This document shows, piece by piece, positions 47,610 to 63,368 of a stretch of 64,000 nt of DNA (the stretch's first letter is position 1; each line of letters starts with the position of its first letter). Location: positions 1 to 64,000 of IMG/VR virus record IMGVR_UViG_3300015171_000002; one strand, 5' to 3'. The notes under the pieces were generated by a model. The model was not told the DNA's origin. It did no database searches and saw nothing but the letters and a program-made list of their open reading frames with translations. The stretch comes from a virus. The position numbers were made by a program, and so were the translations under genes.

Positions 47610-47610
47610 T

Positions 47611-50358: not shown

Positions 50359-50360
50359 CT

Positions 50361-50753: not shown

Positions 50754-50757
50754 GTAT

Positions 50758-50830
50758 GTACCTATAGCTCAATTGGTGGAGCAGATTACTCTTAATAATA
50801 AGGATATGAGTTCGAGACTCATTAGGTACA
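50758..50830 (+). tRNA. tRNA-Lys(CTT)
   Basis: Same acceptor as the TTT gene (GTACCTA / TAGGTAC), D-stem GCTC/GAGC, anticodon loop CTCTTAA, T-arm ATGAG-TTCGAGA-CTCAT. Starts 4 nt after the endonuclease stop codon. Confidence 0.88.
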
Positions 50831-50834
50831 CTAT

Positions 50835-50905
50835 GTTTTATTGGTCTACTGGAAGGACGATAAACTCTCAATTTATAGGCGGCAGTTCAATTCTGCCATA
50901 AAACA
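50835..50905 (+). tRNA. tRNA-Glu(CTC)
   Basis: Acceptor GTTTTAT / ATAAAAC, D-stem GTC/GAC, anticodon arm ATAAA-CTCTCAA-TTTAT, T-arm GGCAG-TTCAATT-CTGCC, discriminator A. Confidence 0.88.
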
Positions 50906-50907
50906 CT

Positions 50908-51012
50908 ATGTTATTTACTGGATTAATTATTTTATTTTGTGCAATTGGTTATAAAAGTTGGATATTATTTTTAGTTGGTTTATATGTTATAACTAGAACA
51001 GATAAGAAATAG
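50908..51012 (+). CDS. 34-residue single-pass membrane peptide
   Basis: MLFTGLIILFCAIGYKSWIL then FLVGLYVITRTDKK: two short hydrophobic stretches and a basic end. Starts 2 nt after tRNA-Glu(CTC) without a ribosome site. One of several tiny membrane proteins in the array. Confidence 0.55.
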   Translation: MLFTGLIILFCAIGYKSWILFLVGLYVITRTDKK

Positions 51013-51015
51013 AAC

Positions 51016-51086
51016 GCGACATTCTTCTATAGGTAGGAATTCTGACTTTCAATCAGATAGATAGGGTTCGAGTCCCTAATGTTGCA
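51016..51086 (+). tRNA. tRNA-Glu(TTC)
   Basis: Acceptor GCGACAT / ATGTTGC, D-stem TTC/GAA, anticodon arm TCTGA-CTTTCAA-TCAGA, T-arm TAGGG-TTCGAGT-CCCTA, discriminator A. Confidence 0.88.
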
Positions 51087-51272
51087 CTAGAGAGTGTTTT
51101 TCTAAACTCTTGAATCGGGCCAAAAGGTGAAATCGTAGGCTGTGGGGTTATCATGTGAAATAACCGGCTTTATCTTGTTTTACCAGAATAAACGAGCGTT
51201 ATAGGTCAAATAAATTCGATAATGGGATATTGACTTTCTTCATAGAATGGTAAGATTAAATTCTATAAATAT
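51087..51272 (+). ncRNA. Structured RNA segment C
   Basis: No ORF in 186 nt. Hairpins GGTTAT...ATAACC near 51147-51166 and CTTGTTT-TACCAGAAT-AAACGAG near 51174-51196. The latter shares AATAAACGAG with segment B. Not a recognisable tRNA, tmRNA or RNase P RNA. Confidence 0.35.
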
Positions 51273-51344
51273 CAGGGTGAGGGAAAAATGGTAATCCGTT
51301 GCGTTTGGGGCGCGAAGAAGCTGGATCGTTGCCAGCCACCTTGA
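51273..51344 (+). tRNA. tRNA-Pro(TGG)
   Basis: Acceptor CAGGGTG / CACCTTG with one G-U, D-stem GGA/TCC, anticodon arm TTGCG-TTTGGGG-CGCGA with G37 as in other Pro tRNAs, T-arm GCTGG-ATCGTTG-CCAGC, discriminator A. Confidence 0.82.
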
Positions 51345-51511
51345 CCTATCAGATAATCTAGAATATTCTGAAAATGTATCTAATCATACCAAAATTAGCG
51401 GTTATCGTTTTCTCGAAAATAAACGAGGTTTGTCTACCAGCTTGTCAACGATAGACTATCTTAACTAATCAAAGTGGAAGGATAAACTTTAGATTTTTTA
51501 TAAGGAATAAT
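51345..51511 (+). ncRNA. Structured RNA segment B
   Basis: No ORF. Ends with AAAGT-GGAAGGATAA-ACTTT, a hairpin with the same 10-nt loop as in segment A. Contains CTCG-AAAATAAA-CGAG and GTCTA...TAGAC pairings. The region merges into the ribosome site AAGGAATAAT of the next gene. Confidence 0.38.
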
Positions 51512-51823
51512 ATGTTACCAGAACGAAAATTAAATGCTCAACAGAACGCTATACTACAACTTTCTGCAATTATAGCAGCCGTACATTTCGAGACAAATGA
51601 TGCAGTTACTAAACAGTTTATTACTATGATGGCTAGTCAAGTAGCGGCAGAATATCAACAGGATAGCCAAGACCCATTAGCTCCATCTTTATTTTTGCCG
51701 GTTAAACTAACTGAAGTTTTTAGGGATGCAATGGCTAAGATGCGAACAGGTTATGAACTTGATTTAAAATCTCAAAAACTGGTGCATACCATATCTAAAA
51801 ATGGCAAAGGAAAAAATGACTAG
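51512..51823 (+). CDS. Helical 103-residue protein
   Basis: LNAQQNAILQLSAIIAAVHF, then QFITMMASQVAAEYQQDSQD and a basic end. Ribosome site ATAAGGA. No family recognised. Overlaps the next gene by 8 nt. Confidence 0.55.
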   Translation: MLPERKLNAQQNAILQLSAIIAAVHFETNDAVTKQFITMMASQVAAEYQQDSQDPLAPSLFLPVKLTEVFRDAMAKMRTGYELDLKSQKLVHTISKNGKGKND

Positions 51824-52019
51824 ACGTTGTAGTAAATGTGGTTTTGAGTGGGATGGTAAAGATACAGAATGTTATAATTGTGAATCAGAAGAAACTTATA
51901 TCCTACCAGACAGTATTGATTTAGAAGTTTCATTCGGTAATATAAAAGATAATAAAATTTTAACTAAGAATTTATTAACTGGTGATAGTTTAAAACGTAA
52001 ACTAAAAGAAAGAAAATGA
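51816..52019 (+). CDS. Zinc-ribbon protein
   Basis: 67 residues: RRCSKCGFEW then DTECYNCESEE is a two-knuckle zinc ribbon. ATG 51816 is preferred (AAGGA 6 nt upstream); an in-frame ATG at 51801 is also present. Followed by a membrane peptide in ATGA overlap. Confidence 0.65.
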   Translation: MTRRCSKCGFEWDGKDTECYNCESEETYILPDSIDLEVSFGNIKDNKILTKNLLTGDSLKRKLKERK

Positions 52020-52141
52020 TATTCTCAATTTGTTTTATTTTATTAGGTTGGTTATTTGTTGGTTCTTATAAAATAATGATGGGAATATTAGAGGGAATAT
52101 TATTTGCAGGTTTATTTGTTTTGAATAGAATATTCGGGTAG
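52016..52141 (+). CDS. 41-residue membrane peptide
   Basis: MIFSICFILLGWLFVGSYKI then MMGILEGILFAGLFVLNRIF: two predicted membrane helices. Its TAG stop lies inside the acceptor stem of the following tRNA-Ser. Confidence 0.55.
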   Translation: MIFSICFILLGWLFVGSYKIMMGILEGILFAGLFVLNRIFG

Positions 52142-52231
52142 ATGGCTGAGTCCGGCTGAAAGCGCCTGTCTTGAAAACAGATAATCGTATTGAATAAATA
52201 TGGTTCGTTGGTTCAAATCCAACTTTACCCG
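52136..52231 (+). tRNA. tRNA-Ser(TGA)
   Basis: Acceptor GGGTAGA / TTTACCC, discriminator G, anticodon loop CTTGAAA, class II long variable region (about 26 nt), T-arm GTTGG-TTCAAAT-CCAAC. Confidence 0.88.
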
Positions 52232-52236
52232 CCTTT

Positions 52237-52323
52237 GGAGAGTTGACAGAGTGGTAATGTGCTAATTTGCTAAATTAGAGCCGCCCGTAAAAGGGTGCAT
52301 AAGTTCGATACTTATACCCTCCG
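52237..52323 (+). tRNA. tRNA-Ser(GCT)
   Basis: Acceptor GGAGAGT / ACCCTCC with one A-C mismatch, anticodon arm CTAAT-TTGCTAA-ATTAG, variable hairpin GCCC/GGGT, T-arm ATAAG-TTCGATA-CTTAT, discriminator G. Confidence 0.87.
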
Positions 52324-52341
52324 CTGAAAGGAAATATTATC

Positions 52342-52518
52342 ATGGGAAAACTAAAATTTTGTTCCTGTTGGATGTGTAGAAGTGGAAAACATACTCCATA
52401 TGGAAAATGTCTTATAAAACAAGCCGTACATTCCTGGCGGCAAGAAGTAAGAATAAAATTAAAAATGGGTGATTACGATAATATTCCTGAATATAAAGCA
52501 GTTGGATATACAGATTAG
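52342..52518 (+). CDS. 58-residue Cys-rich protein
   Basis: GKLKFCSCWMCRSGKHTPYG then KCLIKQAVHSWRQEVRIKLK: cysteines 7, 9, 12 and 23 may bind a metal. Ribosome site GAAAGGAAAT. No family recognised. Confidence 0.55.
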   Translation: MGKLKFCSCWMCRSGKHTPYGKCLIKQAVHSWRQEVRIKLKMGDYDNIPEYKAVGYTD

Positions 52519-52527
52519 TTATATAAT

Positions 52528-52878
52528 ATGTCAAAAAATAATGAAGAAGCTGAACATGAAGCCGGTGAGCATGTAGATAGTATTCTTACCTTTTTTCGTA
52601 AAAGAGAAAAAATGTTAAATTTCTATGGTTTAGAAATGCAAGACTTTCTTTTTATGGAAGCTATGGTAAAAGATACTGAATCTTTACCATTACATAATTT
52701 ATATGCTATGGCTATGATTAATAATGAATCTCTTGAAATAGCAGATATTAGTGATGCTAGACATTTTATTAGGGGTGCAATTCTAGGATATGCGTTAGGT
52801 CTAAAAAATACTTGGCCGGATTTAAATGGTGATGATGGAAAAGAATTACCTGGAAGTGATGAATTAATTCCAACTTAA
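52528..52878 (+). CDS. Acidic 116-residue protein
   Basis: Acidic N-terminus (SKNNEEAEHEAGEHVDSILT), helical middle with MQDFLFMEAMVKDTESLPLH and ISDARHFIRGAILGYALGLK, acidic end. Unrecognised; compatible with a small anti-host or inhibitor protein but no evidence. Confidence 0.55.
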   Translation: MSKNNEEAEHEAGEHVDSILTFFRKREKMLNFYGLEMQDFLFMEAMVKDTESLPLHNLYAMAMINNESLEIADISDARHFIRGAILGYALGLKNTWPDLNGDDGKELPGSDELIPT

Positions 52879-52891
52879 TGATTGGATATAC

Positions 52892-52962
52892 AGACTGATA
52901 CGATAACGGTAGTCATTCAAACTCCAAATCTGAAGGTGTAGGTTCAAATCCTACTCGGTCTG
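52892..52962 (+). tRNA. tRNA-Trp(CCA)
   Basis: Acceptor AGACTGA / TCGGTCT, discriminator G, anticodon loop CTCCAAA identical to the bacterial Trp loop, one A-C mismatch in the stem, T-arm GTAGG-TTCAAAT-CCTAC. Confidence 0.82.
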
Positions 52963-52965
52963 CCT

Positions 52966-53148
52966 ATGTTTTTTGAACAATTACCACAATATATACATAT
53001 TATAATAAGTTTTTTGACCTTTTTACCAATTATATTAAAGCCTGTTCTAACACTTTTAGCAGTTGCTTTATTTGGTATTCATGCATATAAAAAAAGAGAT
53101 TGGGAAAGTTTTGCCTGGTTTGTTATAATAATTGTGTGGGCTATTTAG
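52966..53148 (+). CDS. 60-residue membrane protein
   Basis: MFFEQLPQYIHIIISFLTFL with VLTLLAVALFGIHAYKKRD and FAWFVIIIVWAI: two or three membrane segments with a basic loop. Starts 3 nt after tRNA-Trp without a ribosome site. Confidence 0.6.
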   Translation: MFFEQLPQYIHIIISFLTFLPIILKPVLTLLAVALFGIHAYKKRDWESFAWFVIIIVWAI

Positions 53149-53157
53149 GAATATAAA

Positions 53158-53469
53158 ATGTCTTGTCAATATGATAATACCAGAGTTGGAGCAATAATAA
53201 TATTAAGTAATGCTGGTGCGACTTGTTTCGAATGTAATACACACTATGATTTACCAGATGGAACTATAGCTAAATATGTAGGACATTTCGAAGAAAGCGT
53301 AAAAGTAGCCAAATTAGAATTATATCCACCTTATAAAAATTGTTCGGGTTGTGGCAAAGAAATATATGGTTTACAGATTATTTGTGATAGTGGTAGTTTA
53401 GAAGAATTGTTCTCTAAAAAAGAAGTTGAACAGGATATTACAAGTGCAATATCCAAAGAAATGTTATAA
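53158..53469 (+). CDS. Zinc-ribbon-like protein
   Basis: 103 residues with cysteines CFECN near 25 and CSGCGKE near 62, spaced as two zinc knuckles of a beta-ribbon; C-terminal helix acidic. Unrecognised family. Confidence 0.58.
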   Translation: MSCQYDNTRVGAIIILSNAGATCFECNTHYDLPDGTIAKYVGHFEESVKVAKLELYPPYKNCSGCGKEIYGLQIICDSGSLEELFSKKEVEQDITSAISKEML

Positions 53470-53491
53470 AAAATATAGTAAAATAATTATG

Positions 53492-53561
53492 CGCGTGTTC
53501 GAACAAAGTAAGTTCATCATTCTGTGAAAATGAAAATGGTGCCTCGAACGCCCACATGCGA
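53492..53561 (+). tRNA. tRNA-His(GTG)
   Basis: Acceptor CGCGTGT / ACATGCG, discriminator A, G at -1 in the DNA, D-stem GAAC/GTTC, anticodon arm TCATT-CTGTGAA-AATGA, T-arm TGGTG-CCTCGAA-CGCCC with one mismatch. Confidence 0.8.
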
Positions 53562-53589
53562 CTAAAAACAATATAAAAAAGGATAAAAC

Positions 53590-53841
53590 GTGAAAATTAT
53601 AGTTAGAGCAAGCAATGGTGAGAATATGTGGCTTGATTATAGAAAATCTCTGGAAATAAAAATCTCAGAAGAAGATAAAATAACAAGACGATTAAGTTTT
53701 TACGATGGTGAGCCAGAGGATAATAACTTAAATAGAAATTTTAGTGATGTTTATTCTATTCCTGGCCTGATGCAATTAGCCTTTGAAGCCGGTAAAGCCG
53801 GTCAAACTTTTGAAATTGTAGAAGAAGAGCCTGAAAAGTAG
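53590..53841 (+). CDS. Unrecognised 83-residue protein
   Basis: GTG start after AAAAAAGGATAAAAC. IIVRASNGENMWLDYRKSLE, then SIPGLMQLAFEAGKAGQTFE. TAG stop opens the next palindrome. Confidence 0.5.
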   Translation: MKIIVRASNGENMWLDYRKSLEIKISEEDKITRRLSFYDGEPEDNNLNRNFSDVYSIPGLMQLAFEAGKAGQTFEIVEEEPEK

Positions 53842-53882
53842 TACTACGGTACTATAGACAAAACTGAATATCTGAGTAAAAT
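53839..53882 (+). promoter_or_regulatory. Palindrome-associated promoter, leaderless type
   Basis: TAGTAC-TACG-GTACTA 53839-53854, TAGACA 53855-53860 adjacent, 16 bp, TAAAAT 53877-53882. ATG of the kinase-phosphatase starts 6 nt later. Confidence 0.78.
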
Positions 53883-53888
53883 AAAAGA

Positions 53889-54770
53889 ATGAACACACAA
53901 AAAATCGTTTTCTGTCGAGGACTTCCGGGTTCAGGTAAATCAACATGGGCTAAAGATTTTGTGTCTAAAAATTCTAATTGGGTAAGAACTAATATGGATG
54001 ATATTCGTGAAAAATATTATCCTAATACAAAATTTTCGAAAGAACGGGAAGTTAGTGTCATATCTATTGAAGATAATGAGATTATTATAGCATTGAATGA
54101 TGGAAAAAATATCGTAAACGATAACACTAATTTTAATTCGGTTCATCGTGAACGAATTCTAAAAATTGCTAAAAGTTTAAATATTAATGTAGTATGGGAA
54201 ATTAAAGAATTTAATACAAATTTAGCAGAATGTATTAGAAGAAATTCCAAAAGAGATAATCCTATTCCTCTCAATGCTATTATGAGAATGTGGAGTAAAT
54301 ATCTTAAACCGACACCGATAAAATATAATAAAAATTTATCGGATGCAATCATTGTAGATGTGGACGGAACATTAGCAGATAAAGGTGATAAGAGTCCTTA
54401 TGATCGTGATTTTTCTCTTGATACTTTGATTGTTCCGGTTGGACAACTTATTAGAACACAAAAAGCATTTTATGGAGATAAATTAAATATTCTGATAACT
54501 ACGGGTCGTCATGAAAGTTCGAGAGAAATTACTAAAAAATGGTTATTTGAAAATAATATTCCATTTGATGAGATTTTTATGCGCCCTAATTGGGGGAAAG
54601 AAAAAAATGAGCCACATGATTTTATTATTAAAACAGATATTTATAATAATAAAATTAAAGATAAATATAATATTTTATATTGCATAGATGATAGAAAACA
54701 AATTAAATATACCTGGCTTGAATTGGGATTGTTTGTTTTTGACGTGAATCAGACTGATGATGATTTCTGA
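53889..54770 (+). CDS. Polynucleotide kinase-phosphatase
   Basis: 293 residues. N-terminal kinase P-loop GLPGSGKST 11-19 with DDIR and a lid; C-terminal HAD phosphatase DVDGTLAD 157-164 and TTGRHESSREITKKWL. This is the order of T4 PseT, which heals 5'-OH and 2',3'-cyclic-phosphate ends of cleaved tRNA so a ligase can seal them. Leaderless start. Its place within the tRNA array agrees with tRNA repair. No RNA ligase is seen in the window. Confidence 0.9.
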   Translation: MNTQKIVFCRGLPGSGKSTWAKDFVSKNSNWVRTNMDDIREKYYPNTKFSKEREVSVISIEDNEIIIALNDGKNIVNDNTNFNSVHRERILKIAKSLNINVVWEIKEFNTNLAECIRRNSKRDNPIPLNAIMRMWSKYLKPTPIKYNKNLSDAIIVDVDGTLADKGDKSPYDRDFSLDTLIVPVGQLIRTQKAFYGDKLNILITTGRHESSREITKKWLFENNIPFDEIFMRPNWGKEKNEPHDFIIKTDIYNNKIKDKYNILYCIDDRKQIKYTWLELGLFVFDVNQTDDDF

Positions 54771-54778
54771 CGGAACAC

Positions 54779-54807
54779 TTGACATATTTCGATTTTTGTG
54801 GTATATG
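54779..54807 (+). promoter_or_regulatory. Sigma70-type promoter
   Basis: TTGACA 54779-54784, 17 bp, TATATG 54802-54807 with TGTGG. Leader of about 75 nt before groES. No palindrome. Confidence 0.72.
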
Positions 54808-54884
54808 GCGAGAAATATTTATAATGTATTATCAAATATTGATATTTATAAACTAAACAGAAAGTGGAACTTCTAAAGGATAAA

Positions 54885-55166
54885 ATGATTAATATTACAC
54901 CTTTATATGATAGAGTTATTGTTGAGCCTGTTAGTCCAGTACAAAAACAATCTACAATTCTTGTGGTAGAAACTCCAACAATTGTTATTGGCAAAGTTAT
55001 TGATGTTGGAGCCGGTTATCTGGTAAATGGCGCTTTGGTTCCTATGATTGTTGTAAAGGGACAATTAGTAAGTTATCCAGCTTATGCCGGAACAGAATAT
55101 CCGTATCAGGGTAAGAAATATACTATTCTAAAAGAATCTGATGTTATCGGAATTATAAAGGAATAA
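54885..55166 (+). CDS. GroES-like co-chaperonin
   Basis: 93 residues: MINITPLYDRVIVEPVSPVQ, then VGKVIDVGAGYLVNG-type roof region and VKGQLVSYPAYAGTEYPYQG, KKYTILKESDVIGIIKE. ATG 54885 is preceded by AAAGGATAAA. T4 Gp31 and other phage GroES proteins replace or modify the host co-chaperonin for capsid folding; same role inferred. Confidence 0.82.
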   Translation: MINITPLYDRVIVEPVSPVQKQSTILVVETPTIVIGKVIDVGAGYLVNGALVPMIVVKGQLVSYPAYAGTEYPYQGKKYTILKESDVIGIIKE

Positions 55167-55167
55167 A

Positions 55168-55416
55168 ATGAGCGGATTTGTAATTCTAACTTGTGTATGT
55201 AAATCAGATTTTCAAGATAAGAAATATGGTAAAAGTAAACGTGTTGCTAATCTATCTAAAACAGAACTAAATGCTTTTTGTACGGTTTGCGGAACTAAAT
55301 TAGTAAGTGGTAAAGCTGCCCTCGCTGATAAGAAAAAAGCTGACAAAATAGCTGAAACTGTAAAAGAAGATAAACCTAAAGCACGTCAAAAAGAAAAGGC
55401 TGGCAATAAAAAATAA
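55168..55416 (+). CDS. Cys-rich basic protein
   Basis: 82 residues: VILTCVCKSDFQDKKYGKSK and FCTVCGTKLVSGKAALADKK suggest a zinc ribbon with a Lys/Glu-rich disordered tail. Follows groES by 1 nt. Confidence 0.52.
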   Translation: MSGFVILTCVCKSDFQDKKYGKSKRVANLSKTELNAFCTVCGTKLVSGKAALADKKKADKIAETVKEDKPKARQKEKAGNKK

Positions 55417-55623
55417 ATGCAATTAAAGAAATACGGTAATAATCAAGTAGCAATTTTTGATGAGAAGAATAAACGATTTGTACGTTCTCGCGGAGAAAAT
55501 CTGGCAGTAGCAGTTAAGAATATTAGACGCCTAGATTTGCGTGAATATTTTCAATCTTTAAAACGCCAAGAGATTATAAAAGCCGTACAAATAATTTATG
55601 AAGAACAGAATAAATCTTTTTAA
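55417..55623 (+). CDS. Unrecognised 68-residue basic protein
   Basis: MQLKKYGNNQVAIFDEKNKR, then LAVAVKNIRRLDLREYFQSL. No ribosome site, but it starts immediately after the preceding stop, so coupled translation is likely. Confidence 0.5.
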   Translation: MQLKKYGNNQVAIFDEKNKRFVRSRGENLAVAVKNIRRLDLREYFQSLKRQEIIKAVQIIYEEQNKSF

Positions 55624-55733
55624 TGTTTATTATAATGGCTTGTATAATAATAGGTATAATATTTTTACCAATACTGGCTATTCTTATTTGGGCAATAGCT
55701 AGTCAAAGTGGTTCAGAATGGAATAGGAAGTAG
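55623..55733 (+). CDS. 36-residue membrane peptide
   Basis: MFIIMACIIIGIIFLPILAI then LIWAIASQSGSEWNRK: one hydrophobic helix with hydrophilic end. TAATG overlap with the preceding gene; its TAG stop starts the next palindrome. Confidence 0.55.
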   Translation: MFIIMACIIIGIIFLPILAILIWAIASQSGSEWNRK

Positions 55734-55775
55734 TACTAAAGTCCTATTGACTGGTTCGTAGTTCTGAAGTAAGAT
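55731..55775 (+). promoter_or_regulatory. Palindrome-associated promoter
   Basis: TAGTAC-TAAA-GTCCTA 55731-55746, TTGACT 55747-55752, 17 bp, TAAGAT 55770-55775. Transcribes a structured RNA segment, tRNA-Gly and a membrane protein gene. Confidence 0.7.
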
Positions 55776-55781
55776 ATAAAA

Positions 55782-55945
55782 AGTGGTAGGGACAGTAAAC
55801 GGAGCAATGGGAAAACATATTCAAGACTAATCTAAGATATACTAGTTACCAAATTAGAACAAATATGATAATGATACCGCACCGGCCACAAATAGGCTTA
55901 AGCAGGTTTGATAGTTTTCCTCTCATATGTTAAAAACTATCGTAT
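55782..55945 (+). ncRNA. Structured RNA segment D
   Basis: No ORF over ~165 nt between promoter and tRNA-Gly. Contains ACTAATCTAAGATATACTAGT (ACTA pairing TAGT) and a long hairpin GATAGTTT...AAACTATC near 55909-55942. Purpose unknown. Confidence 0.35.
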
Positions 55946-56017
55946 GCGGGATGAGCGAGACAGTAACGCAACAGTTTTCCAAACTGTGACTAGCAGGTGC
56001 GACTCCTGTATCCCGTA
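55946..56017 (+). tRNA. tRNA-Gly(TCC)
   Basis: Acceptor GCGGGAT / ATCCCGT, discriminator A, D-stem GCG/CGC, anticodon arm ACAGT-TTTCCAA-ACTGT, T-arm GCAGG-TGCGACT-CCTGT. Confidence 0.87.
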
Positions 56018-56057
56018 CTGAAATAATAAAAGAATATACTAAATTAAAAGGAAAAAT

Positions 56058-56432
56058 ATGAAACAGGATACTGATATTGGCGCTTTTCTGATTGGATTTT
56101 TTGGGTTACTAACTGGTGGAGCATTATTATTTGTTTTATTAAGTATGCTATCAGTTTTTGTAGAATCATGGGCATTAGTAACATTATGGGGCTGGATTGC
56201 TGTACCGACTTTTCATATGCCAGAATTACTATATTGGCAAGCCTATGGAATTGTAGTAATTGTTGGATTTTTAAGTTCACATTCAATGAGTTTAGGTCAG
56301 TATCAGCGTGATTTAGATACTAAAACTTCAACCAGTACCAGTATTATTTGGGGAATTACTAATATTCTTGGGCCGGTATTTACAGTATTTTTTACTTGGT
56401 TTGTTTTACACTTTTTGTTCGCAGTAATTTAG
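56058..56432 (+). CDS. Multi-pass membrane protein
   Basis: 124 residues with about four hydrophobic segments (IGFFGLLTGGALLFVLLSML, WALVTLWGWIAV, YGIVVIVGFLSSHS, VFTVFFTWFVLHFLFAVI). AAAAGGAAAAAT is the ribosome site. Could be a superinfection or holin-like protein; not recognised. Confidence 0.6.
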   Translation: MKQDTDIGAFLIGFFGLLTGGALLFVLLSMLSVFVESWALVTLWGWIAVPTFHMPELLYWQAYGIVVIVGFLSSHSMSLGQYQRDLDTKTSTSTSIIWGITNILGPVFTVFFTWFVLHFLFAVI

Positions 56433-56451
56433 TATTTGAAATATAATAAAC

Positions 56452-56538
56452 TGATGTAGCCGGGAGATAATTCATAAGTACGGCATAGAGATACTATTCC
56501 CAATAATCGGTAAAATAACGTAAATTTGGGATACATCA
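56452..56538 (+). ncRNA. Closed structured RNA (segment E)
   Basis: A perfect 7-bp terminal helix TGATGTA / TACATCA encloses GCCG...CGGC and ATTCCCA...TTGGGAT stems, a three-way junction of 87 nt. It is tRNA-sized and next to tRNA-Ala, but has no T-arm or anticodon arm. It contains GATAATTCATAAG, a weak match to the AGAAATTCATCA motif of the Ro60-linked RNAs. Confidence 0.4.
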
Positions 56539-56544
56539 AATAAT

Positions 56545-56617
56545 GGGGCTTTGGTGCTAATCAGTAACACAGTACTTTTGCAAAGTTCAGTAAACGGGGC
56601 AGAGCCGTTAAGCTCCA
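56545..56617 (+). tRNA. tRNA-Ala(TGC)
   Basis: Acceptor GGGGCTT / AAGCTCC, discriminator A, D-stem GTG/CAC, anticodon loop TTTGCAA on a stem with one T-T mismatch, T-stem AACGG/CCGTT with an unusual GGCAGAG loop. Confidence 0.75.
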
Positions 56618-56623
56618 CAATAA

Positions 56624-56790
56624 ATGAAACTAAAATGTCCACAATGCGGTAGATTATTTATTATTCCAGCTACAGATATATGGTGGTTGGCAGATGCAAA
56701 AAAAGAAATCCTAAATTAATAATAATCTGTAGTAGATGTGGACGTATTGAAGAAATAAAATCTGAAAAGATTCGACGTAAAATAAAATGA
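56624..56790 (+). CDS. Zinc-ribbon protein split by a -1 frameshift at A7
   Basis: Frame one gives MKLKCPQCGRLFIIPATDIW and ends at 56719 (31 residues). A -1 shift on the run of seven A (56697-56704; gca aaa aaa g) leads into RNPKLIIICSRCGRIEEIKS and ends at 56790. Joined, the 55-residue product has the paired CPQC and CSRC knuckles of a zinc ribbon. Either programmed -1 slippage, transcript slippage, or a sequencing/indel error explains it. Confidence 0.6.
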
Positions 56791-56865
56791 TGCGGGTTGG
56801 TGTAGTGGTCTATCACGCCAGTCTCATAAACTGTTATTCGCTCTGTTCGAATCAGGCACCCGCTA
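56791..56865 (+). tRNA. tRNA with CAT anticodon (Met or Ile2)
   Basis: Acceptor TGCGGGT / ACCCGCT with U1-U72 mismatch, D-stem GTG/CAC, anticodon arm CCAGT-CTCATAA-ACTGT, T-arm CTCTG-TTCGAAT-CAGGC with one mismatch, discriminator A. A 1-72 mismatch is an initiator feature, but the three G-C pairs of initiators are missing; Ile2 with lysidine is possible. Confidence 0.8.
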
Positions 56866-56867
56866 CT

Positions 56868-57272
56868 ATGAATCATAAAGATGAAGTATTAGAAATAACT
56901 TTCGGGAAAGCTAATAATATTTTAAGACGTTCTTTATTATTTAGCTTTATAGTAAAATTAGGAATAAATAAATGTTATAGATGTAATTTACCTATGACAT
57001 TAGATAATTATTCTATTGAACATATAGAGTCATGGGAATATTCAGATACGCCGAAAGAATTATTTTTCGATTTAGATAATATATCTTTTTCACATAAGTT
57101 TTGTAATAATAGTGCTGGTGGGCATGTTGGTTATAGTAAGAAAAATTCTTGTCGTTATGGTCATAAGTGGACTGAAGAAAATACTTATTGGCGAACAAGA
57201 AATAATGGTAAGAAACAGCGTCAATGTAGAGAATGTAATAGATTGAAAGCTCAACGACTAAGAAATAAATAA
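56868..57272 (+). CDS. HNH homing endonuclease
   Basis: 134 residues. CYRCNLPM and EHIESWEYSD, then LDNISFSHKFCNNS give the HNH core with its zinc; a C-terminal second zinc-like part (CRYGHKWTEENTYWRTRNNG, then CRECNRLKAQR) is common in phage HNH enzymes. ATG 56868 follows the tRNA by 2 nt and has no ribosome site. Inserted between tRNA-Met and tRNA-Ile. Confidence 0.8.
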   Translation: MNHKDEVLEITFGKANNILRRSLLFSFIVKLGINKCYRCNLPMTLDNYSIEHIESWEYSDTPKELFFDLDNISFSHKFCNNSAGGHVGYSKKNSCRYGHKWTEENTYWRTRNNGKKQRQCRECNRLKAQRLRNK

Positions 57273-57273
57273 T

Positions 57274-57346
57274 ATTCCCATCTTCCAATGGTTAAGGAAA
57301 CGGGTCTGATACACTCGGAATTGAGGTTCGAATCCTTGTGGGAGTA
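57274..57346 (+). tRNA. tRNA-Ile(GAT)
   Basis: Acceptor ATTCCCA / TGGGAGT, discriminator A followed by CCA in the DNA, D-stem TTC/GAA, anticodon arm CGGGT-CTGATAC-ACTCG, T-arm TGAGG-TTCGAAT-CCTTG. Confidence 0.87.
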
Positions 57347-57352
57347 CCATGT

Positions 57353-57440
57353 GCTAACGCGGCTATAAATTAACTTTTATCGGTTAGCTAATCTCTGGCT
57401 TAGATGATAACTGTAGGCATACAGATAGCCCTAATTAAAA
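57353..57440 (+). ncRNA. tRNA-like structured segment F
   Basis: GGCTAT / ATAGCC closes a segment with TAAC...GTTA, ATCT-CTGGCTT-AGAT (loop spells anticodon GGC) and CTGT-AGGCAT-ACAG with a 6-nt loop. It could be a decayed tRNA-Ala(GGC) or an unrelated RNA; GCTAAC...GTTAGC is a competing hairpin. Confidence 0.35.
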
Positions 57441-57448
57441 TATAAATT

Positions 57449-57521
57449 GACACTGTAGCAAAGAGAGTAATGCGTTCCTCTGCAAAAGGAATATACGAGG
57501 GCGCAAGTCCCTCCGGTGTCT
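57449..57521 (+). tRNA. tRNA-Cys(GCA)
   Basis: Acceptor GACACTG / CGGTGTC, discriminator T as expected for Cys, D-stem GCA/TGC, anticodon arm TTCCT-CTGCAAA-AGGAA, T-arm GAGGG-CGCAAGT-CCCTC. Confidence 0.9.
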
Positions 57522-57523
57522 CT

Positions 57524-57739
57524 ATGGAAAATCTAATTAAACAATCACGGAAAGATGAAGTAGTAGTAAATAAAGGTTCAGATAATTTAGTCTGTAATAT
57601 GTTTGGGCATATCTGGACGGAAATAAAAGATGATAGACCTATTGAAATGGTTAATACTTATCATGCCAAATTTCCTAGAACAGATAGATGTAGCCGCTGT
57701 AAAAAAACAGTACAATATTCAGTTTTATCTATGATGTAG
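57524..57739 (+). CDS. Cys-containing 71-residue protein
   Basis: MENLIKQSRKDEVVVNKGSD, then CNMFGHIWTEIKDDRP and CSRCKKTVQYSV; a Cys..His..CxxC arrangement may hold zinc. Starts 2 nt after tRNA-Cys with no ribosome site. Confidence 0.58.
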   Translation: MENLIKQSRKDEVVVNKGSDNLVCNMFGHIWTEIKDDRPIEMVNTYHAKFPRTDRCSRCKKTVQYSVLSMM

Positions 57740-57744
57740 TTTAT

Positions 57745-57818
57745 GCCGAATTAGCTCAGATAGCTAGAGCGCCTGTCTTACATACAGGATGTGAATGGTG
57801 CAAGTCCTTTATTCGGTA
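57745..57818 (+). tRNA. tRNA-Val(TAC)
   Basis: Acceptor GCCGAAT / ATTCGGT, discriminator A, D-stem GCTC/GAGC, anticodon arm CCTGT-CTTACAT-ACAGG, T-arm AATGG-TGCAAGT-CCTTT with one T-T mismatch. Confidence 0.88.
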
Positions 57819-57820
57819 CT

Positions 57821-58408
57821 ATGAAAAATGTAATTTTAACATCACATACTGGAAATAATGCAGATTTATTGCCTTATATTTTTGAATTATACGTTCCAGA
57901 TAGTAGCAAAATAGCTGATGTTACTTATGGTAAAGGCGTATTTTGGAATAATATAGATAAAGAAAAATATCAATTATTTCCAAGTGACCTACAATCTGGT
58001 ATAGATTTTACTAAATTACCTTATGAAAATAATATTTTTGATTGTCTAATTTTAGACCCCCCGTATATGCATGGCGGGCAAACAATAAAATCTAGTATAA
58101 ACGATTGTTATAAAAATAAAAATACCAGTCACGAAAGCGTTATCAGATTATATACTGGTGGAATATTAGAAGCTAGTCGTGTTCTAAAGAAAAAAGGAAT
58201 TATATTAGTAAAATGTCAGGATGAGATTGAAAGTGGAAAACAACGATTATCTCATTTAGAATTAATTCAAATATTAGAAATTTTAGGATTTAGTATAGAA
58301 GATTTATTTATTCTGACACAAAAAACAATTCCAGCTATGCGGGAAAATTATCAGAAAATAGCTAGAAAAAATCATAGTTATATGATTGTTGCAAGATTTA
58401 GAAAATGA
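57821..58408 (+). CDS. DPPY-type DNA methyltransferase
   Basis: 195 residues. VTYGKGVFWNNI is the SAM motif I, LILDPPYMHGG near 83-93 is motif IV, and ASRVLKKKGIILVKCQDEI follows as in N6-adenine methylases. Compact, with no separate recognition domain. Starts 2 nt after tRNA-Val without a ribosome site. Together with the DLPY enzyme at 39301 the phage codes for two methylases. Confidence 0.78.
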   Translation: MKNVILTSHTGNNADLLPYIFELYVPDSSKIADVTYGKGVFWNNIDKEKYQLFPSDLQSGIDFTKLPYENNIFDCLILDPPYMHGGQTIKSSINDCYKNKNTSHESVIRLYTGGILEASRVLKKKGIILVKCQDEIESGKQRLSHLELIQILEILGFSIEDLFILTQKTIPAMRENYQKIARKNHSYMIVARFRK

Positions 58409-58483
58409 CGCTCGGTATCATAATTGGAATAATGAACTTGCCTGTCACGCAAGGATATGAGAGTTCGAGTCTCTTTCGGGTGG
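58409..58483 (+). tRNA. tRNA-Asp(GTC)
   Basis: Acceptor CGCTCGG / TCGGGTG with several G-U pairs, discriminator G, D-stem TCA/TGA, anticodon arm CTTGC-CTGTCAC-GCAAG, T-arm GAGAG-TTCGAGT-CTCTT. Confidence 0.82.
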
Positions 58484-58487
58484 CCTT

Positions 58488-58772
58488 ATGAAAATACCAA
58501 TCGATAGTTTTGAAGCATATAATTTAGATGATGGTTCCATAATGATAGAAATGTATGGTAGAGACTTTCGTATTGGTATTACTATAGATAAAGATACAAA
58601 TGAATCGGGTATGTGGCTTGTTTGTAATCAAAAATTAGATAAAATTTTAGAGCCACATCATCATAGAATTTTTGATTTATTTCCACCAGAAATGGTAGAA
58701 ATGATTGCTAAAATAAATACAATAGAAAAACCTTATGAAATTGAATGTTGGGAAGATGATGGTGGTCAATGA
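58488..58772 (+). CDS. Unrecognised acidic 94-residue protein
   Basis: MKIPIDSFEAYNLDDGSIMI, then LFPPEMVEMIAKINTIEKPY. Starts 4 nt after tRNA-Asp without a ribosome site; ends in overlap with the next gene (ATGA). Confidence 0.55.
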   Translation: MKIPIDSFEAYNLDDGSIMIEMYGRDFRIGITIDKDTNESGMWLVCNQKLDKILEPHHHRIFDLFPPEMVEMIAKINTIEKPYEIECWEDDGGQ

Positions 58773-58954
58773 TATTTATTGATGTAGATAATTGTCCTAG
58801 TTGTGGTGATGATCATATTGAGGTAAATGCTGTAGAATTACCTATTCCAGTGACAATAGATGGACACGAATATTCTTTTATGCTTATCTGTCCTGAAACC
58901 GGCGATAGTGTATATGTAAATGATAGTGATAAATTTCAAGTAATAAAGGAATAA
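58769..58954 (+). CDS. Small zinc-ribbon-like protein
   Basis: 61 residues: FIDVDNCPSCGDDHIEVNAV then MLICPETGDSVYVND; one CxxC and a later Cys. Unrecognised. Confidence 0.52.
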   Translation: MIFIDVDNCPSCGDDHIEVNAVELPIPVTIDGHEYSFMLICPETGDSVYVNDSDKFQVIKE

Positions 58955-58956
58955 AA

Positions 58957-59187
58957 ATGTGGTTTGAATTTCATTTTTCTATAACACTATTTAAATATAA
59001 TTTTCAGGCTAGTTGGGAGCCTTATAATGGTGTAAATAATGGAATAAAAGGTAATTCACCGATAAAAAAACCATATATTTTTAAAGTAAAAGAAACAGAA
59101 CTAAGTGCCGCTAAATATTATGGGGGTTGGTGGTCTTGGAGTTGGAATTGGTTATATTTTGAGTTTCAAATAACAGAATTAGTTTGA
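58957..59187 (+). CDS. Aromatic 76-residue protein
   Basis: MWFEFHFSITLFKYNFQASW, then YYGGWWSWSWNWLYFEFQIT: unusually rich in Trp, Tyr and Phe. AAAGGAATAAAA ribosome site. No family recognised; the aromatic patch suggests membrane or protein binding. Confidence 0.55.
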   Translation: MWFEFHFSITLFKYNFQASWEPYNGVNNGIKGNSPIKKPYIFKVKETELSAAKYYGGWWSWSWNWLYFEFQITELV

Positions 59188-59191
59188 TTAT

Positions 59192-59265
59192 GCCTTTGTG
59201 GTGCAATCGGTAGACACAACAATTTTAGAAATTGTGGTCTGAAAGTTCGAATCTTTCCAAAGGCA
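59192..59265 (+). tRNA. tRNA-Leu(TAG) with short variable loop
   Basis: Acceptor GCCTTTG / CAAAGGC, D-stem GTG/CAC, anticodon arm ACAAT-TTTAGAA-ATTGT, variable loop only GGTCT, T-arm GAAAG-TTCGAAT-CTTTC, discriminator A. Bacterial Leu tRNAs normally have a long variable arm. Confidence 0.83.
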
Positions 59266-59275
59266 CTTTTTGTAT

Positions 59276-59349
59276 GTCCCATTAGACCAATTGGCAGAGC
59301 CGTTTCGCTCAAGACGAAAATGTTGAAAGTTCGAATCTTTCATGGGATA
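59276..59349 (+). tRNA. tRNA-Leu(CAA) with short variable loop
   Basis: Acceptor GTCCCAT / ATGGGAT, weak D-stem, anticodon arm TTTCG-CTCAAGA-CGAAA, variable loop ATGTT, the same T-arm as the preceding tRNA-Leu, discriminator A. Confidence 0.78.
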
Positions 59350-59353
59350 CTAT

Positions 59354-59437
59354 GAGTAAGTATCCAAACTGGCTGAAGGACGATGACTGTAAATCATCCA
59401 CTATGAAACGTTGTAGGTTCAAATCCTATCTTACTCA
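59354..59437 (+). tRNA. tRNA-Tyr(GTA)
   Basis: Acceptor GAGTAAG / CTTACTC, D-stem TCC/GGA, anticodon arm GATGA-CTGTAAA-TCATC, class II variable region of 14 nt, T-arm GTAGG-TTCAAAT-CCTAT, discriminator A. Confidence 0.9.
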
Positions 59438-59452
59438 CTAAAGGAAACTAAA

Positions 59453-59866
59453 ATGGATTACTTTCAATTTATAAAAGATTACGAATTTATTGAAAAACAT
59501 TTAGAAACTATAGTACCTATTTATAAAAAGATTTACGATTTAGATAGATGGTCTTATTTAGGTATTGATTTTACTCAAGATGAGCCAGCTTTCCGCGATG
59601 ATGGTATTTTAATTTATTTCGATAAATATTATTCTGGTGATAACGATTATGAAAGATTTAGAGTTCCATTTGAATTTTTTAGTTTTATGGATCATCAAAT
59701 TGAAGAAGAATTAGTTAGACGAATAGATGAACAGAGATCAATAGAAACTAAAAAACAATTAGAGAAGTTAGAAAAAGAAAGATTAGAAAAAGAAGCGGCA
59801 CTTAAAATTAGAGAAGAAGCTGAATATAAAAGATATTTACAACTAAAAGAAAAATATGAAAAATAA
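59453..59866 (+). CDS. Protein with C-terminal coiled coil
   Basis: 137 residues; N-terminal ~90 mixed (FIKDYEFIEKHLETIVPIYK, then PFEFFSFMDHQIEEELVRRI), C-terminal helix rich in Glu/Lys/Arg. AAAGGAAACTAAA ribosome site. Unrecognised. Confidence 0.55.
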   Translation: MDYFQFIKDYEFIEKHLETIVPIYKKIYDLDRWSYLGIDFTQDEPAFRDDGILIYFDKYYSGDNDYERFRVPFEFFSFMDHQIEEELVRRIDEQRSIETKKQLEKLEKERLEKEAALKIREEAEYKRYLQLKEKYEK

Positions 59867-59867
59867 T

Positions 59868-59940
59868 GCCGCTGTTGCATAGATGGTCTGTGCGTCATTC
59901 TGAAGAAATGAAGGTACTGGATCGTTACCAGTCGGCGGCA
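59868..59940 (+). tRNA. tRNA-Phe(GAA)
   Basis: Acceptor GCCGCTG / CGGCGGC, D-stem GCA/TGC, anticodon arm TCATT-CTGAAGA-AATGA, T-arm ACTGG-ATCGTTA-CCAGT, discriminator A. Starts 1 nt after the preceding stop codon. Confidence 0.88.
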
Positions 59941-59971
59941 CCTTGTAATAATAGATTTAGGAGAATAATAA

Positions 59972-60250
59972 ATGCTCTATAGAACACTTTGTGATGTTTT
60001 AGATGAAATGAGAAAAGCATATAAAACTTATAATTTTTCCTATCTTCCTGGCCTAATCGAAGAGATTCAACATTTAGGTAATCGAATGGAAGCCGCTTTA
60101 GAAGAAGGTCATCAGGTAGAATATTATCACGCAAAGGCCAAAGAAGCCGAAGCTGAATATAAAGAAGTAAAGGCACGTCTCGAAGAACTTCAAAAACAAT
60201 TACCAAAAGATGAGCAACCCGATGAGAAAAAAGGTTATATAGATTATTAA
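59972..60250 (+). CDS. Helical coiled-coil protein
   Basis: 92 residues, mainly helix (LCDVLDEMRKAYKTYNFSYL, then AKEAEAEYKEVKARLEELQK). Ribosome site TTTAGGAG. Unrecognised. Confidence 0.55.
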   Translation: MLYRTLCDVLDEMRKAYKTYNFSYLPGLIEEIQHLGNRMEAALEEGHQVEYYHAKAKEAEAEYKEVKARLEELQKQLPKDEQPDEKKGYIDY

Positions 60251-60253
60251 TAT

Positions 60254-60325
60254 TCCCGCTTAGTTTATTCAGTAAAACAGGTATCTTGTAAATATCGGTG
60301 GGCCGAGCGAAGCGACCAGTGGGAG
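60254..60325 (+). tRNA. tRNA-Thr(TGT)
   Basis: Acceptor TCCCGCT / AGTGGGA with one G-U, D-stem GTTT/AAAC, anticodon arm GGTAT-CTTGTAA-ATATC, T-stem GGCCG/CGACC with one mismatch and loop AGCGAAG, discriminator G. Last canonical tRNA of the array. Confidence 0.75.
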
Positions 60326-60327
60326 CC

Positions 60328-61380: not shown

Positions 61381-61423
61381 TACTAAGGTACTAGTTGACA
61401 AAATAGAGAAGTTGACGTAGAAT
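61378..61423 (+). promoter_or_regulatory. Palindrome-associated promoter of the Y RNA-Ro60 transcript
   Basis: TAGTAC-TAAG-GTACTA 61378-61393, TTGACA 61395-61400, 17 bp, TAGAAT 61418-61423. The leader from ~61430 to the Ro60 start is about 400 nt. Confidence 0.8.
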
Positions 61424-61633: not shown

Positions 61634-61803
61634 AAAGATAAGATAGTGAGCCAAAGAAATTCATCAAAATGATAATTTGGCGATATGAGTTCGAATCTCA
61701 TGCCTGACGAAAGTTGGGTTAGCTCAACTGGTAGAGCATAAAAACAATTTCTTAGCAATTTTCTTCTTATTTTTTATGCGTATATTAGAAATAATTTATC
61801 TTA
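61634..61803 (+). ncRNA. YrlA-like Y RNA, circularly permuted tRNA mimic
   Basis: Order: AAGATAA (61635-61641) that pairs TTATCTT (61796-61802); GATAGTGAG; hairpin GCCAAA...TTTGGC holding AGAAATTCATCA (61655-61666); T-arm ATGAG-TTCGAAT-CTCAT (61685-61701); acceptor-like stem GCCTGAC-GAAA-GTTGGGT (61702-61719) closed by a GNRA loop; TA; D-arm GCTC-AACTGGTA-GAGC (61722-61737); ATAAAAA...TTTTTAT hairpin. T-arm first, D-arm last is a permuted tRNA. This agrees with the described tRNA-mimic module of bacterial YrlA RNAs, and it precedes Ro60, the usual YrlA context. Confidence 0.75.
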
Positions 61804-61826
61804 CCCTGGAAAGGCGTTGAAACAAA

Positions 61827-63368
61827 ATGACAAAATTTAATAAATTAAATGTATCTGAAAAAGTTGGAATTGGTAATAAAGTAACTGTAAATAAAGCCGG
61901 TGGGCCAGCAATTACACTTTCTGATCGAATGGAATTAGCTACTCTTTTATTGACTTCTTTTGTAGATGATAAATATTACGAAACTGCATCAGAACAATTA
62001 AAACGATTAAGTTCTATTTTTGATCGATTAAATAGTAATGGTGATGCTAAATTCGCAGCTAAAGCGGCTATTTATGCTAGACATACAATGGGAATGCGTT
62101 CTATTTCTCAAGCTCTTTCGGCTAATATTGCTGCTAAAGTAAGTGGGCAGGACTGGACTCGTTCATTTTTTGAGAAATTTCCACGGCGAGTAGATGATAT
62201 GACTGAATTAGTTAGTTTCTTTCAGTCTAATTTCTCAACTGGTAAGAATAAATCAGGATATCCAAGAGCATTACCAAATGCTATGAAATATGGATTACGA
62301 AATGCTTTTGGTAAATTCAATGAATATCAGCTTGCTAAGTATCGGGCCGAGGGTAAAGAAGTTAGTCTATTAGATTTAGTAAATATTCTACATCCAGTTC
62401 CAAATGATAATAATAAAATAGCTTTAAATAAGTTAGTTAATGGAACTTTGACAAGTACTGAAACTTGGGAAAGTCAGATTTCAAATGCTGGACAAGTAGG
62501 AGAAAATAAGGAAGAAGTAGACGAATTAAAGGGACAAGCTTTCGATAACTTAATTAGAACTAAGAAAATTGGTTATTTTGCCCTATTAAAGAATTTACGA
62601 AATATTCTACAATTATCACCAGAAAGTATTGATGCAGCAGTAGAAATGCTAACCGATAAGAAAATGATTGAAAAAAGTTTAGTATTTCCTTTTAGATTTT
62701 TAGATGCTTATGAAGCTATTCAAGCAGAAGCGGTTGGAGGACATAGTAATAAAAATGTTCAAAAGCTTTATGCTGGTATCAACAAGGCATTAGAATTATC
62801 ATTTAGTAATGTGCCTGAATTCAACGGTACTAATTTAATTGCTGTAGATAGTTCTGGTAGTATGAGTGGTAGACCTTTCCGAATTGCGGCACTTTTCGGA
62901 GTTATTCTACTAAAACAAAACCCGGATAGTGATTTCATGCTATTTGATGATGATGCCAGATATGTAAAGAATGTCAATCTAGGTGATACTACTCTAAGTC
63001 TTGTGGAAAGTTTATATAAGTCTCAAGGTGGTGGAACTAATCTAGCTGATGTTTTCGTAAAAGCAAATAAGAAATATGATCGAGTATTTATTTTTTCTGA
63101 TTGTCAGTCATGGATGGTAGCCGATAACTATTCTAATTATTATAAAGGTGCAGTAGGAACAGTAAAAAATACATTCGCGGCATATTCAAAGAAATATGGT
63201 AAGCCGAGAGTATATAGTATAGATTTAGCAGGTCATGGAAGTGCGGAATTTAGTTCTAATGATGTAAGTACTGTAGCTGGATTTTCTGACAAAACTATAA
63301 CATTACTATCTAGGATGGAGCAGGATAGAAATGCTCTAGTAAATACTATCGAAGCTGTAGAACTATAA
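61827..63368 (+). CDS. Ro60/Rsr orthologue (TROVE-vWA RNA-binding protein)
   Basis: 513 residues. Residues ~30-330 are the helical TROVE ring (AKAAIYARHTMGMRSISQAL, PNAMKYGLRNAFGKFNEYQL, LKNLRNILQLSP); ~335-513 are a von Willebrand A domain with a full MIDAS DSSGSMSG at 341-348 and GGGTNLADVF. In animals and bacteria, Ro60 binds misfolded RNAs in its ring and Y RNAs on its outside; in Deinococcus the Y RNA tethers it to PNPase. GGAAAGG lies 12 nt before ATG 61827. A YrlA-like RNA lies directly upstream. Confidence 0.93.
   Translation: MTKFNKLNVSEKVGIGNKVTVNKAGGPAITLSDRMELATLLLTSFVDDKYYETASEQLKRLSSIFDRLNSNGDAKFAAKAAIYARHTMGMRSISQALSANIAAKVSGQDWTRSFFEKFPRRVDDMTELVSFFQSNFSTGKNKSGYPRALPNAMKYGLRNAFGKFNEYQLAKYRAEGKEVSLLDLVNILHPVPNDNNKIALNKLVNGTLTSTETWESQISNAGQVGENKEEVDELKGQAFDNLIRTKKIGYFALLKNLRNILQLSPESIDAAVEMLTDKKMIEKSLVFPFRFLDAYEAIQAEAVGGHSNKNVQKLYAGINKALELSFSNVPEFNGTNLIAVDSSGSMSGRPFRIAALFGVILLKQNPDSDFMLFDDDARYVKNVNLGDTTLSLVESLYKSQGGGTNLADVFVKANKKYDRVFIFSDCQSWMVADNYSNYYKGAVGTVKNTFAAYSKKYGKPRVYSIDLAGHGSAEFSSNDVSTVAGFSDKTITLLSRMEQDRNALVNTIEAVEL

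What the first reader, a model, noticed from the sequence alone, without database searches (positions are those of the whole stretch)
61634..63368. Phage Ro60 with its own YrlA-like Y RNA
A complete TROVE-vWA protein (MIDAS DSSGSMSG) is preceded by an RNA built as T-arm, acceptor-like stem capped by GAAA, then D-arm, with the 5' and 3' ends pairing. All seven acceptor-like pairs form (GCCTGAC with GTTGGGT, three G-U). This is a circularly permuted tRNA mimic of the YrlA kind, next to Ro60 as in bacteria. A phage carrying both parts would have its own RNA-surveillance or RNA-decay machine, perhaps to handle tRNA fragments or to redirect host PNPase.
Basis: partly seen in the sequence, partly recalled or inferred. 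Interest (0 to 1): 0.96.

Follow-up and report, generated by a model that had tools for sequence, protein, structure and literature searches.

The report
Phage Ro60 with a Y RNA
This large virus of microbes (apparently of bacteria) carries both halves of a known RNA-handling machine, a ring-shaped Ro60 protein and a small RNA that imitates a transfer RNA, so it can probably make its own RNA quality-control particle; the pairing is real and turns out to be common in phages, and was already known in principle.

Summary
The 513-aa ORF at 61827-63368 is a Ro60/Rsr-type TROVE-vWA protein (Pfam TROVE 1.4e-21; predicted fold matches Thermus phage phiLo Ro60, animal Ro60 and Deinococcus Rsr). The 141-nt RNA just upstream (61634-61774) is a YrlA-like Y RNA. 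Rfam YrlA aligns full length but at 29.7 bits, below its gathering score of 69. A covariance model built from 19 other phage Y RNAs, without the window, finds it at 66.6 bits (E 2.8e-16 in 64 kb); the next match, a tRNA-tRNA junction, scores 19.9. In 28 viral sequences, 31 of 32 pairs show compensatory change; the window forms 30 of 32.

It is not unique. Ro60 is in 95 phage records, and YrlA-like RNAs lie beside it in many, often as arrays. Phage Ro60 and Y RNAs were reported or proposed before (mycobacteriophages, Listeria phage CKA15). This is a new, divergent member of a known kind.

The same 112-kb fragment carries 21 tRNAs, a polynucleotide kinase-phosphatase, two RNA ligases and a CCA-adding-like enzyme, so I favour tRNA surveillance and repair; that function, and any PNPase link, is inferred. 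The most surprising things lie in relatives: an un-permuted tRNA-shaped Y RNA in crAss-like phages and a 214-292-nt non-tRNA-like version in huge phages.

The parts
61827..63368 (+). Ro60/Rsr-type protein (TROVE domain plus C-terminal vWA domain), 513 aa
   Evidence: Pfam TROVE 1.4e-21; PHROG 850 6.1e-38; profile A8 against PDB: phage phiLo Ro60 1e-53, Xenopus Ro60 5e-25, Deinococcus Rsr 4e-24; AlphaFold2 pLDDT 82, Foldseek 9kop, 9l5y, 9nfa, 2nvo, 1yvp. K171, D341, S343, S345 and T404 invariant and H189 at least 90% in 34 homologues.
61634..61774 (+). YrlA-like Y RNA, 141 nt
   Evidence: Rfam YrlA 29.7 bits full length; model R1 built without the window 66.6 bits, E 2.8e-16; 30 of 32 consensus pairs formed; covariation.
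61634..61658 (+). 5' strand of Ro-binding stem: outer stem, conserved GATAGTGAG (61642-61650) and inner stem
   Evidence: A11 consensus GGTAGTGAnAAnAGAGTTACTTCG in 28 viral sequences; both stems covary.
61659..61665 (+). ATTCATC, the counterpart of the conserved TTACTTC after the inner stem
   Evidence: Alignments A2 and A11: T27, C29, T31, C32 invariant.
61685..61701 (+). T-arm, ATGAG-TTCGAAT-CTCAT
   Evidence: 99.3% of cells paired, 4 of 5 pairs with changes on both sides in A11.
61702..61719 (+). Acceptor-like 7-bp stem closed by GAAA
   Evidence: 97% of cells paired, all 6 consensus pairs with changes on both sides.
61722..61737 (+). D-arm, GCTC-AACTGGTA-GAGC
   Evidence: 94.6% of cells paired, all 4 pairs with changes on both sides.
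61749..61774 (+). 3' strand of Ro-binding stem: inner stem, conserved AATTTTCTTC (61757-61766) and outer stem
   Evidence: A11 consensus AATTTTCTCC; helices 1 and 2 of A11.
61395..61423 (+). Promoter-like site TTGACA-17-TAGAAT (11 of 12), a possible start for the Y RNA/Ro60 leader
   Evidence: consensus match only, 17 sites found against 13.3 expected in shuffles.
53889..54770 (+). Polynucleotide kinase-phosphatase, probable partner in RNA repair
   Evidence: HAD_PNKP 1.6e-27; PHROG 505 polynucleotide kinase 5e-67.
38912..60327 (+). 20 tRNA genes, the likely pool served
   Evidence: ARAGORN; one more tRNA-Leu beyond the window.

Best explanation
A large tailed phage encodes a Ro60 ribonucleoprotein. 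The Y RNA gene lies just upstream of Ro60 on the same strand (directly visible). Its paired ends with the conserved GAUAGUGAG / AAUUUUCUUC strands form the Ro-binding stem that docks on the outside of the Ro60 ring (inferred from homology to Y RNAs). The T-arm, capped acceptor stem and D-arm form a compact tRNA elbow without a clear anticodon arm or free 3' end (helices shown by covariation). That module tethers or competes for tRNA-binding proteins, such as tRNA-modifying enzymes, an exonuclease or repair enzymes, and gates access of structured RNA to the ring (inferred). With the phage's 21 tRNAs, polynucleotide kinase-phosphatase, two RNA ligases and CCA-adding-like enzyme, the most likely job is surveillance and repair of tRNAs, the phage's own or the host's, when they are cleaved or misfolded during infection (inferred). 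Identity of the two parts about 0.97; the tRNA-repair function about 0.45.
For: Protein identity. Residues in the region that binds Y RNA in animal Ro60 (Xenopus K170 and H187, from memory) align with window K171 and H189, conserved in 34 homologues. RNA identity. Synteny: a Y RNA match of at least 40 bits beside Ro60 in 31 of 80 viral loci, 29 of them upstream on the same strand, and in about 50 of 80 loci from assembled genomes. Repair kit on the same 112-kb record: kinase-phosphatase 53889-54770, T4 Rnl1-like ligase 73268-74347, CCA-adding-like nucleotidyltransferase 75684-76364, DRB0094-type RNA ligase 76366-77403, 21 tRNAs. Literature: jumbo phages that carry TROVE proteins were discussed together with RNA repair (PMC7824862).
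Against: No expression or binding data. The repair enzymes are 7-14 kb away, not in one operon with Ro60. No RtcB and no PNPase-type domain in the fragment, though it is incomplete. The inner Ro-binding stem is weak in an isolated fold. Many phages carry repair ligases and tRNAs without Ro60 (general knowledge), so co-occurrence is weak evidence of shared function.
Confidence: 0.6

Rival explanations
1. RYPER-like decay machine: the Y RNA's tRNA-like end tethers the host exonuclease PNPase to phage Ro60, which feeds structured RNA into it and redirects host RNA decay.
For: This is the mechanism shown for Deinococcus Rsr (cited in PMC12282133); the anatomy here, Ro stem plus a further module, is compatible.
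Against: Host unknown; no PNPase domain in this fragment. The tRNA-like module is of the YrlA type, and whether it binds PNPase cannot be told from sequence.
Confidence: 0.25
2. tRNA decoy: the Y RNA mainly mimics tRNA to occupy host anticodon nucleases, tRNA-binding defence proteins or modification enzymes; Ro60 only stabilises it.
For: T-arm, acceptor-like stem and D-arm strongly conserved; related phages have arrays of Y RNAs with different tRNA-like modules, some with an anticodon-like hairpin.
Against: The window RNA has no clear anticodon arm and no free acceptor end, which most anticodon nucleases and synthetases need.
Confidence: 0.2
3. Not a Y RNA: a chance join of two decayed tRNA halves in a tRNA-rich region.
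For: The window is full of tRNA genes; the module is made of tRNA-like arms.
Against: Real tRNA-tRNA junctions in the same window score at most 19.9 bits against 66.6. All five helices covary across homologues, including the Ro stem, which tRNA halves would not supply. Same position beside Ro60 in many phages.
Confidence: 0.02

Closest known systems
YrlA Y RNAs of bacteria (Rfam RF02553; Chen 2014, Sim and Wolin reviews, from memory and citing papers)
   Same: Order T-arm, capped acceptor-like stem, D-arm inside a stem made by the 5' and 3' ends; next to Ro60/Rsr.
   Different: 29.7 bits against a gathering score of 69; AT-rich; Ro-stem strands GAUAGUGAG / AAUUUUCUUC rather than the Rfam consensus. 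All related phage Y RNAs tested also fall below 69 (best 51.6).
Mycobacteriophage Y RNAs (Chen 2014, as cited in PMC12282133)
   Same: Phage-borne Y RNA.
   Different: Different phage lineage; not compared directly here because the paper is not held.
Listeria phage CKA15 Rsr plus proposed Y RNAs (PMC12282133)
   Same: Phage Ro60 near abundant non-coding RNA.
   Different: There expression was seen and Y RNAs only proposed; here structure and covariation are shown and expression is unknown.
Ro60 of Thermus phage phiLo (PDB 9l5y, 9kop)
   Same: Best solved relative in sequence and fold.
   Different: About 22% identity; no YrlA-like RNA found beside it.
Deinococcus Rsr / RYPER
   Same: Ro60 orthologue, PDB 2nvo, E 4e-24 with the profile.
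   Different: PNPase tethering shown there, untested here; its Y RNA was not compared here.

Membership tests
Ro60/Rsr (TROVE-vWA) | TROVE domain | tested here: met
   77.6 bits against cut-off 23.
Ro60/Rsr (TROVE-vWA) | C-terminal vWA with MIDAS residues | tested here: met
   D341, S343, S345, T404 invariant in 34 homologues; VWA_2 20.2 bits is below its cut-off of 27, but Foldseek aligns the whole protein to Ro60 structures.
Ro60/Rsr (TROVE-vWA) | Ro60 fold | tested here: met
   Foldseek E 2.9e-16 to 2.3e-11 with Ro60/Rsr structures, TM 0.56-0.70.
Rsr equivalog (NCBIfam NF041674) | Curated equivalog score | tested here: not met
   27.9 bits against 900: a Ro60-family protein, not filed as an Rsr equivalog.
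Ro60/Rsr (TROVE-vWA) | Binds Y RNA and misfolded RNA | not testable with these tools
   Needs binding assays.
YrlA-type Y RNA | T-arm, capped acceptor-like stem, D-arm in permuted order | tested here: met
YrlA-type Y RNA | Ends pair to form a Ro-binding stem with conserved strands | tested here: met
   the inner half is weak by energy alone.
YrlA-type Y RNA | Adjacent to a Ro60 gene | tested here: met
   Ends 52 nt before the Ro60 start codon.
Rfam RF02553 as curated | Gathering score | tested here: not met
   29.7 against 69. Filed as a YrlA-like Y RNA outside the curated Rfam family, like its phage relatives.
YrlA-type Y RNA | Expressed and bound by Ro60 | not testable with these tools
   Needs RNA-seq and pull-down.
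RYPER (Ro60-Y RNA-PNPase) | PNPase partner | tested here: inconclusive
   None encoded in the 112-kb fragment; host unknown.
Bacterial RNA-repair operon (rsr-yrlA-rtcBA) | RtcB ligase with Ro60 | tested here: not met
   No RtcB in the fragment; ATP-dependent RNA ligases are present instead.

The most novel reading that the evidence does not exclude
Phage Ro60 systems use the Ro-binding stem as a shared handle on which interchangeable RNA modules are mounted: permuted tRNA mimics as in this window, class II or anticodon-bearing mimics in tandem arrays, stems without a module, an un-permuted tRNA shape with the Ro stem in the anticodon position (crAss-like phages), and a 214-292-nt non-tRNA module (huge phages). 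The phage RNP would then be a programmable adaptor for tRNA and RNA handling, of which this window is one plain example.
Probability: 0.45. Interest if true: 0.75.

Novelty: new member of a known kind. Interest (0 to 1): 0.5.

Why it matters
It supports, with covariation and synteny over tens of viral loci, that phages commonly encode both halves of the Ro60-Y RNA particle, mostly unannotated or mis-annotated as tRNA. The function of bacterial Ro60 is poorly understood, and culturable phages with the same arrangement (crAss001, CcrColossus, Xanthomonas phage Olaya, Brevundimonas phage Gurke, Gordonia phage Neville) would let it be tested by deleting either half and watching tRNA and RNA decay during infection.

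Tried and rejected
Chance or tRNA debris: rejected by the junction control and covariation. A second Y RNA in the window at 61411-61477 (GACGTAGAATACTTAC...CTGTTCAC): not found by R1, folds otherwise; not claimed. The 61556-61634 hairpin (z -2.46) has no convincing Rfam match and no Ro-stem motif; unexplained. PNPase or RtcB in the same record: none. Host from terminase and DNA polymerase: best matches are haloarchaeal tailed viruses at about 32% and 25% identity, too distant to name a host. Ro60 tree: the window sits on a long branch without firm placement; phage and assembled-genome Ro60s are mixed (at least 6 switches forced), and some 'genome' loci are tRNA-dense and may be phage contigs binned with bacteria, so direction of transfer is not claimed. 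Chen 2014 and the Sim and Wolin reviews are not held.

Full report
What is there. The window is the first 64,000 bases of a 112,017-base IMG/VR virus record, probably a fragment. At 61827-63368 lies a complete 513-aa ORF with the MIDAS motif DSSGSMSG. Pfam gives TROVE at 1.4e-21, PHROGs gives an RNA-binding protein family at 6.1e-38. A profile of 34 homologues matches the phage phiLo Ro60 structures at 1e-53, Xenopus Ro60 at 5e-25 and Deinococcus Rsr at 4e-24. The AlphaFold2 model (pLDDT 82) matches the same structures by Foldseek, led by 9kop and 9l5y, the latter titled as Ro60 of Thermus phage phiLo. NCBIfam's Rsr equivalog cut-off is not reached. So it is a Ro60-family protein.

The RNA. 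Rfam YrlA aligns over its whole length with 29.7 bits, E 1.7e-4 for 481 bases, but its gathering score is 69, and a scan of the whole window with gathering thresholds lists only tRNAs. To test it independently I collected YrlA-like matches beside Ro60 in other phages, aligned 19 of them without the window, found 29 of 31 pairs with compensatory change, and built model R1. R1 finds the window RNA full length at 66.6 bits, E 2.8e-16 in 64 kb; the next matches are tRNA genes at 19.9 and 19.3 bits, the first spanning a tRNA-Lys/tRNA-Glu junction, which is the natural control for 'two tRNA halves side by side'. On 32 model-aligned sequences every pair has changes on both sides, 94.3% of cells pair, covariation 0.918 against 0.236 in shuffles and at most 0.18 when slid (that alignment leans to the model). 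On a MAFFT alignment of 28 viral sequences including the window the figures are 31 of 32 pairs, 93.1%, 0.863 against 0.246, and the window forms 30 of the 32 pairs.

Ro-binding stem. The 28-sequence alignment shows conserved strands GGTAGTGA...TTACTTCG and AATTTTCTCC. The window has GATAGTGAG...ATTCATC and AATTTTCTTC. By energy alone the outer stem is firm, but the inner stem has a probability of only about 0.1, because GCCAAA pairs locally with UUUGGC. Either protein binding shifts this, or the hairpin is a real alternative state; I cannot tell.

How common. tblastn finds Ro60 in 95 of 50,697 phage records, and a profile-guided scan finds 381 relatives among viral contigs. R1 matches of at least 40 bits lie beside Ro60 in 31 of the best 80 viral loci, 29 upstream on the same strand, and in about 50 of 80 loci from assembled genomes, mostly Verrucomicrobiota and Bacteroidota. 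Several of the latter are dense with tRNA genes and may be phage contigs in bacterial bins. A tree mixes phage and genome Ro60s (at least six switches forced) and does not place the window firmly.

Mechanism. Shown: both parts present, adjacent, same strand; the RNA's structure maintained by selection; the protein's fold and conserved residues. Inferred: binding of the Ro stem to the outer face of Ro60 at the region holding K171 and H189, which align with the Xenopus residues K170 and H187 that I recall as needed for Y RNA binding (alignment). Context: the record also holds 21 tRNA genes, a polynucleotide kinase-phosphatase, a T4 Rnl1-like RNA ligase, a DRB0094-type RNA ligase and a CCA-adding-like nucleotidyltransferase. 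I therefore favour tRNA surveillance and repair over PNPase redirection, at modest confidence. No RNase_PH or RtcB domain is in the fragment, and the host is unknown.

Against the known. PMC12282133 cites Chen 2014 for Y RNAs in mycobacteriophages and proposes an Rsr with Y RNAs in Listeria phage CKA15; PMC7765460 mentions phages with YrlA; PMC7824862 discusses TROVE proteins of jumbo phages under RNA repair; a Mycolicibacterium prophage with YrlA is listed in PMC8190616. The finding is therefore a new and divergent member of a known kind. Its phage relatives also miss the Rfam cut-off (best 51.6 bits), so the Rfam family under-reports this RNA.

Verdict. Observation confirmed, identity supported, function open, novelty moderate. 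The stranger items are in the relatives and are listed under things noticed in passing.

Noticed in passing
L027 3866-4010 (crAss001, NC_049977) and L021 4615-4757 (cr112_1): Just downstream of Ro60, an unannotated ~143-nt RNA with acceptor stem, D-arm and T-arm in normal tRNA order and a Y RNA Ro-binding stem (motif GTTGGTGTAG...GTTACTTC) where the anticodon arm should be: an un-permuted counterpart of YrlA. Found in 24 phage records, all crAss-like.
   Followed up: partly
L011 5583-5867, also L034, L036, L038, L041, L042, L048, L055, L056, L067: Huge phages related to LR745206 carry, upstream of Ro60, a 214-292-nt RNA whose ends form a Ro-type stem but whose interior is a conserved non-tRNA module; no Rfam match in L011, some compensatory pairs (10 of 40 predicted). 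A shorter Y-like RNA precedes it.
   Followed up: partly
L022 1298-2403 (CcrColossus), L024 1809-2424 (Olaya), L028 1488-2221 (Gurke): Arrays of about 4 to 7 Y RNAs before Ro60, some with an intact tRNA-Asn-like anticodon hairpin (CGACTGTTAATCGAG), some with a class II-like long variable arm, some without tRNA-like module.
   Followed up: partly
L028 2086-2160, L022 1619-1686, L023 1969-2059: Annotated 'tRNA' genes before phage Ro60 (tRNA-Ser, tRNA-Gln, tRNA-Pro) that overlap Y RNAs and are probably mis-annotated.
   Followed up: partly
window 61556-61634: A stable hairpin (z -2.46, 1 of 200 shuffles as good) directly before the Y RNA, without a convincing Rfam match or Ro motif.
   Followed up: partly
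window 61428-61560: Non-coding stretch after a good promoter-like site (61395-61423), with possible long-range pairing GTGAAAG/CTTTCAC; unexplained.
   Followed up: partly
record positions 73268-77403 (L029 10269-14404): Two RNA ligases around a CCA-adding-like nucleotidyltransferase, with a tRNA-Leu gene just before it: an RNA-repair cluster.
   Followed up: partly
record 103959-105311 and window 42596-45010: Terminase and DNA polymerase are closest to haloarchaeal tailed viruses, though at low identity.
   Followed up: no
window 54864-55166: A GroES-like co-chaperonin gene (Cpn10, 2.8e-16) near the tRNA cluster.
   Followed up: no
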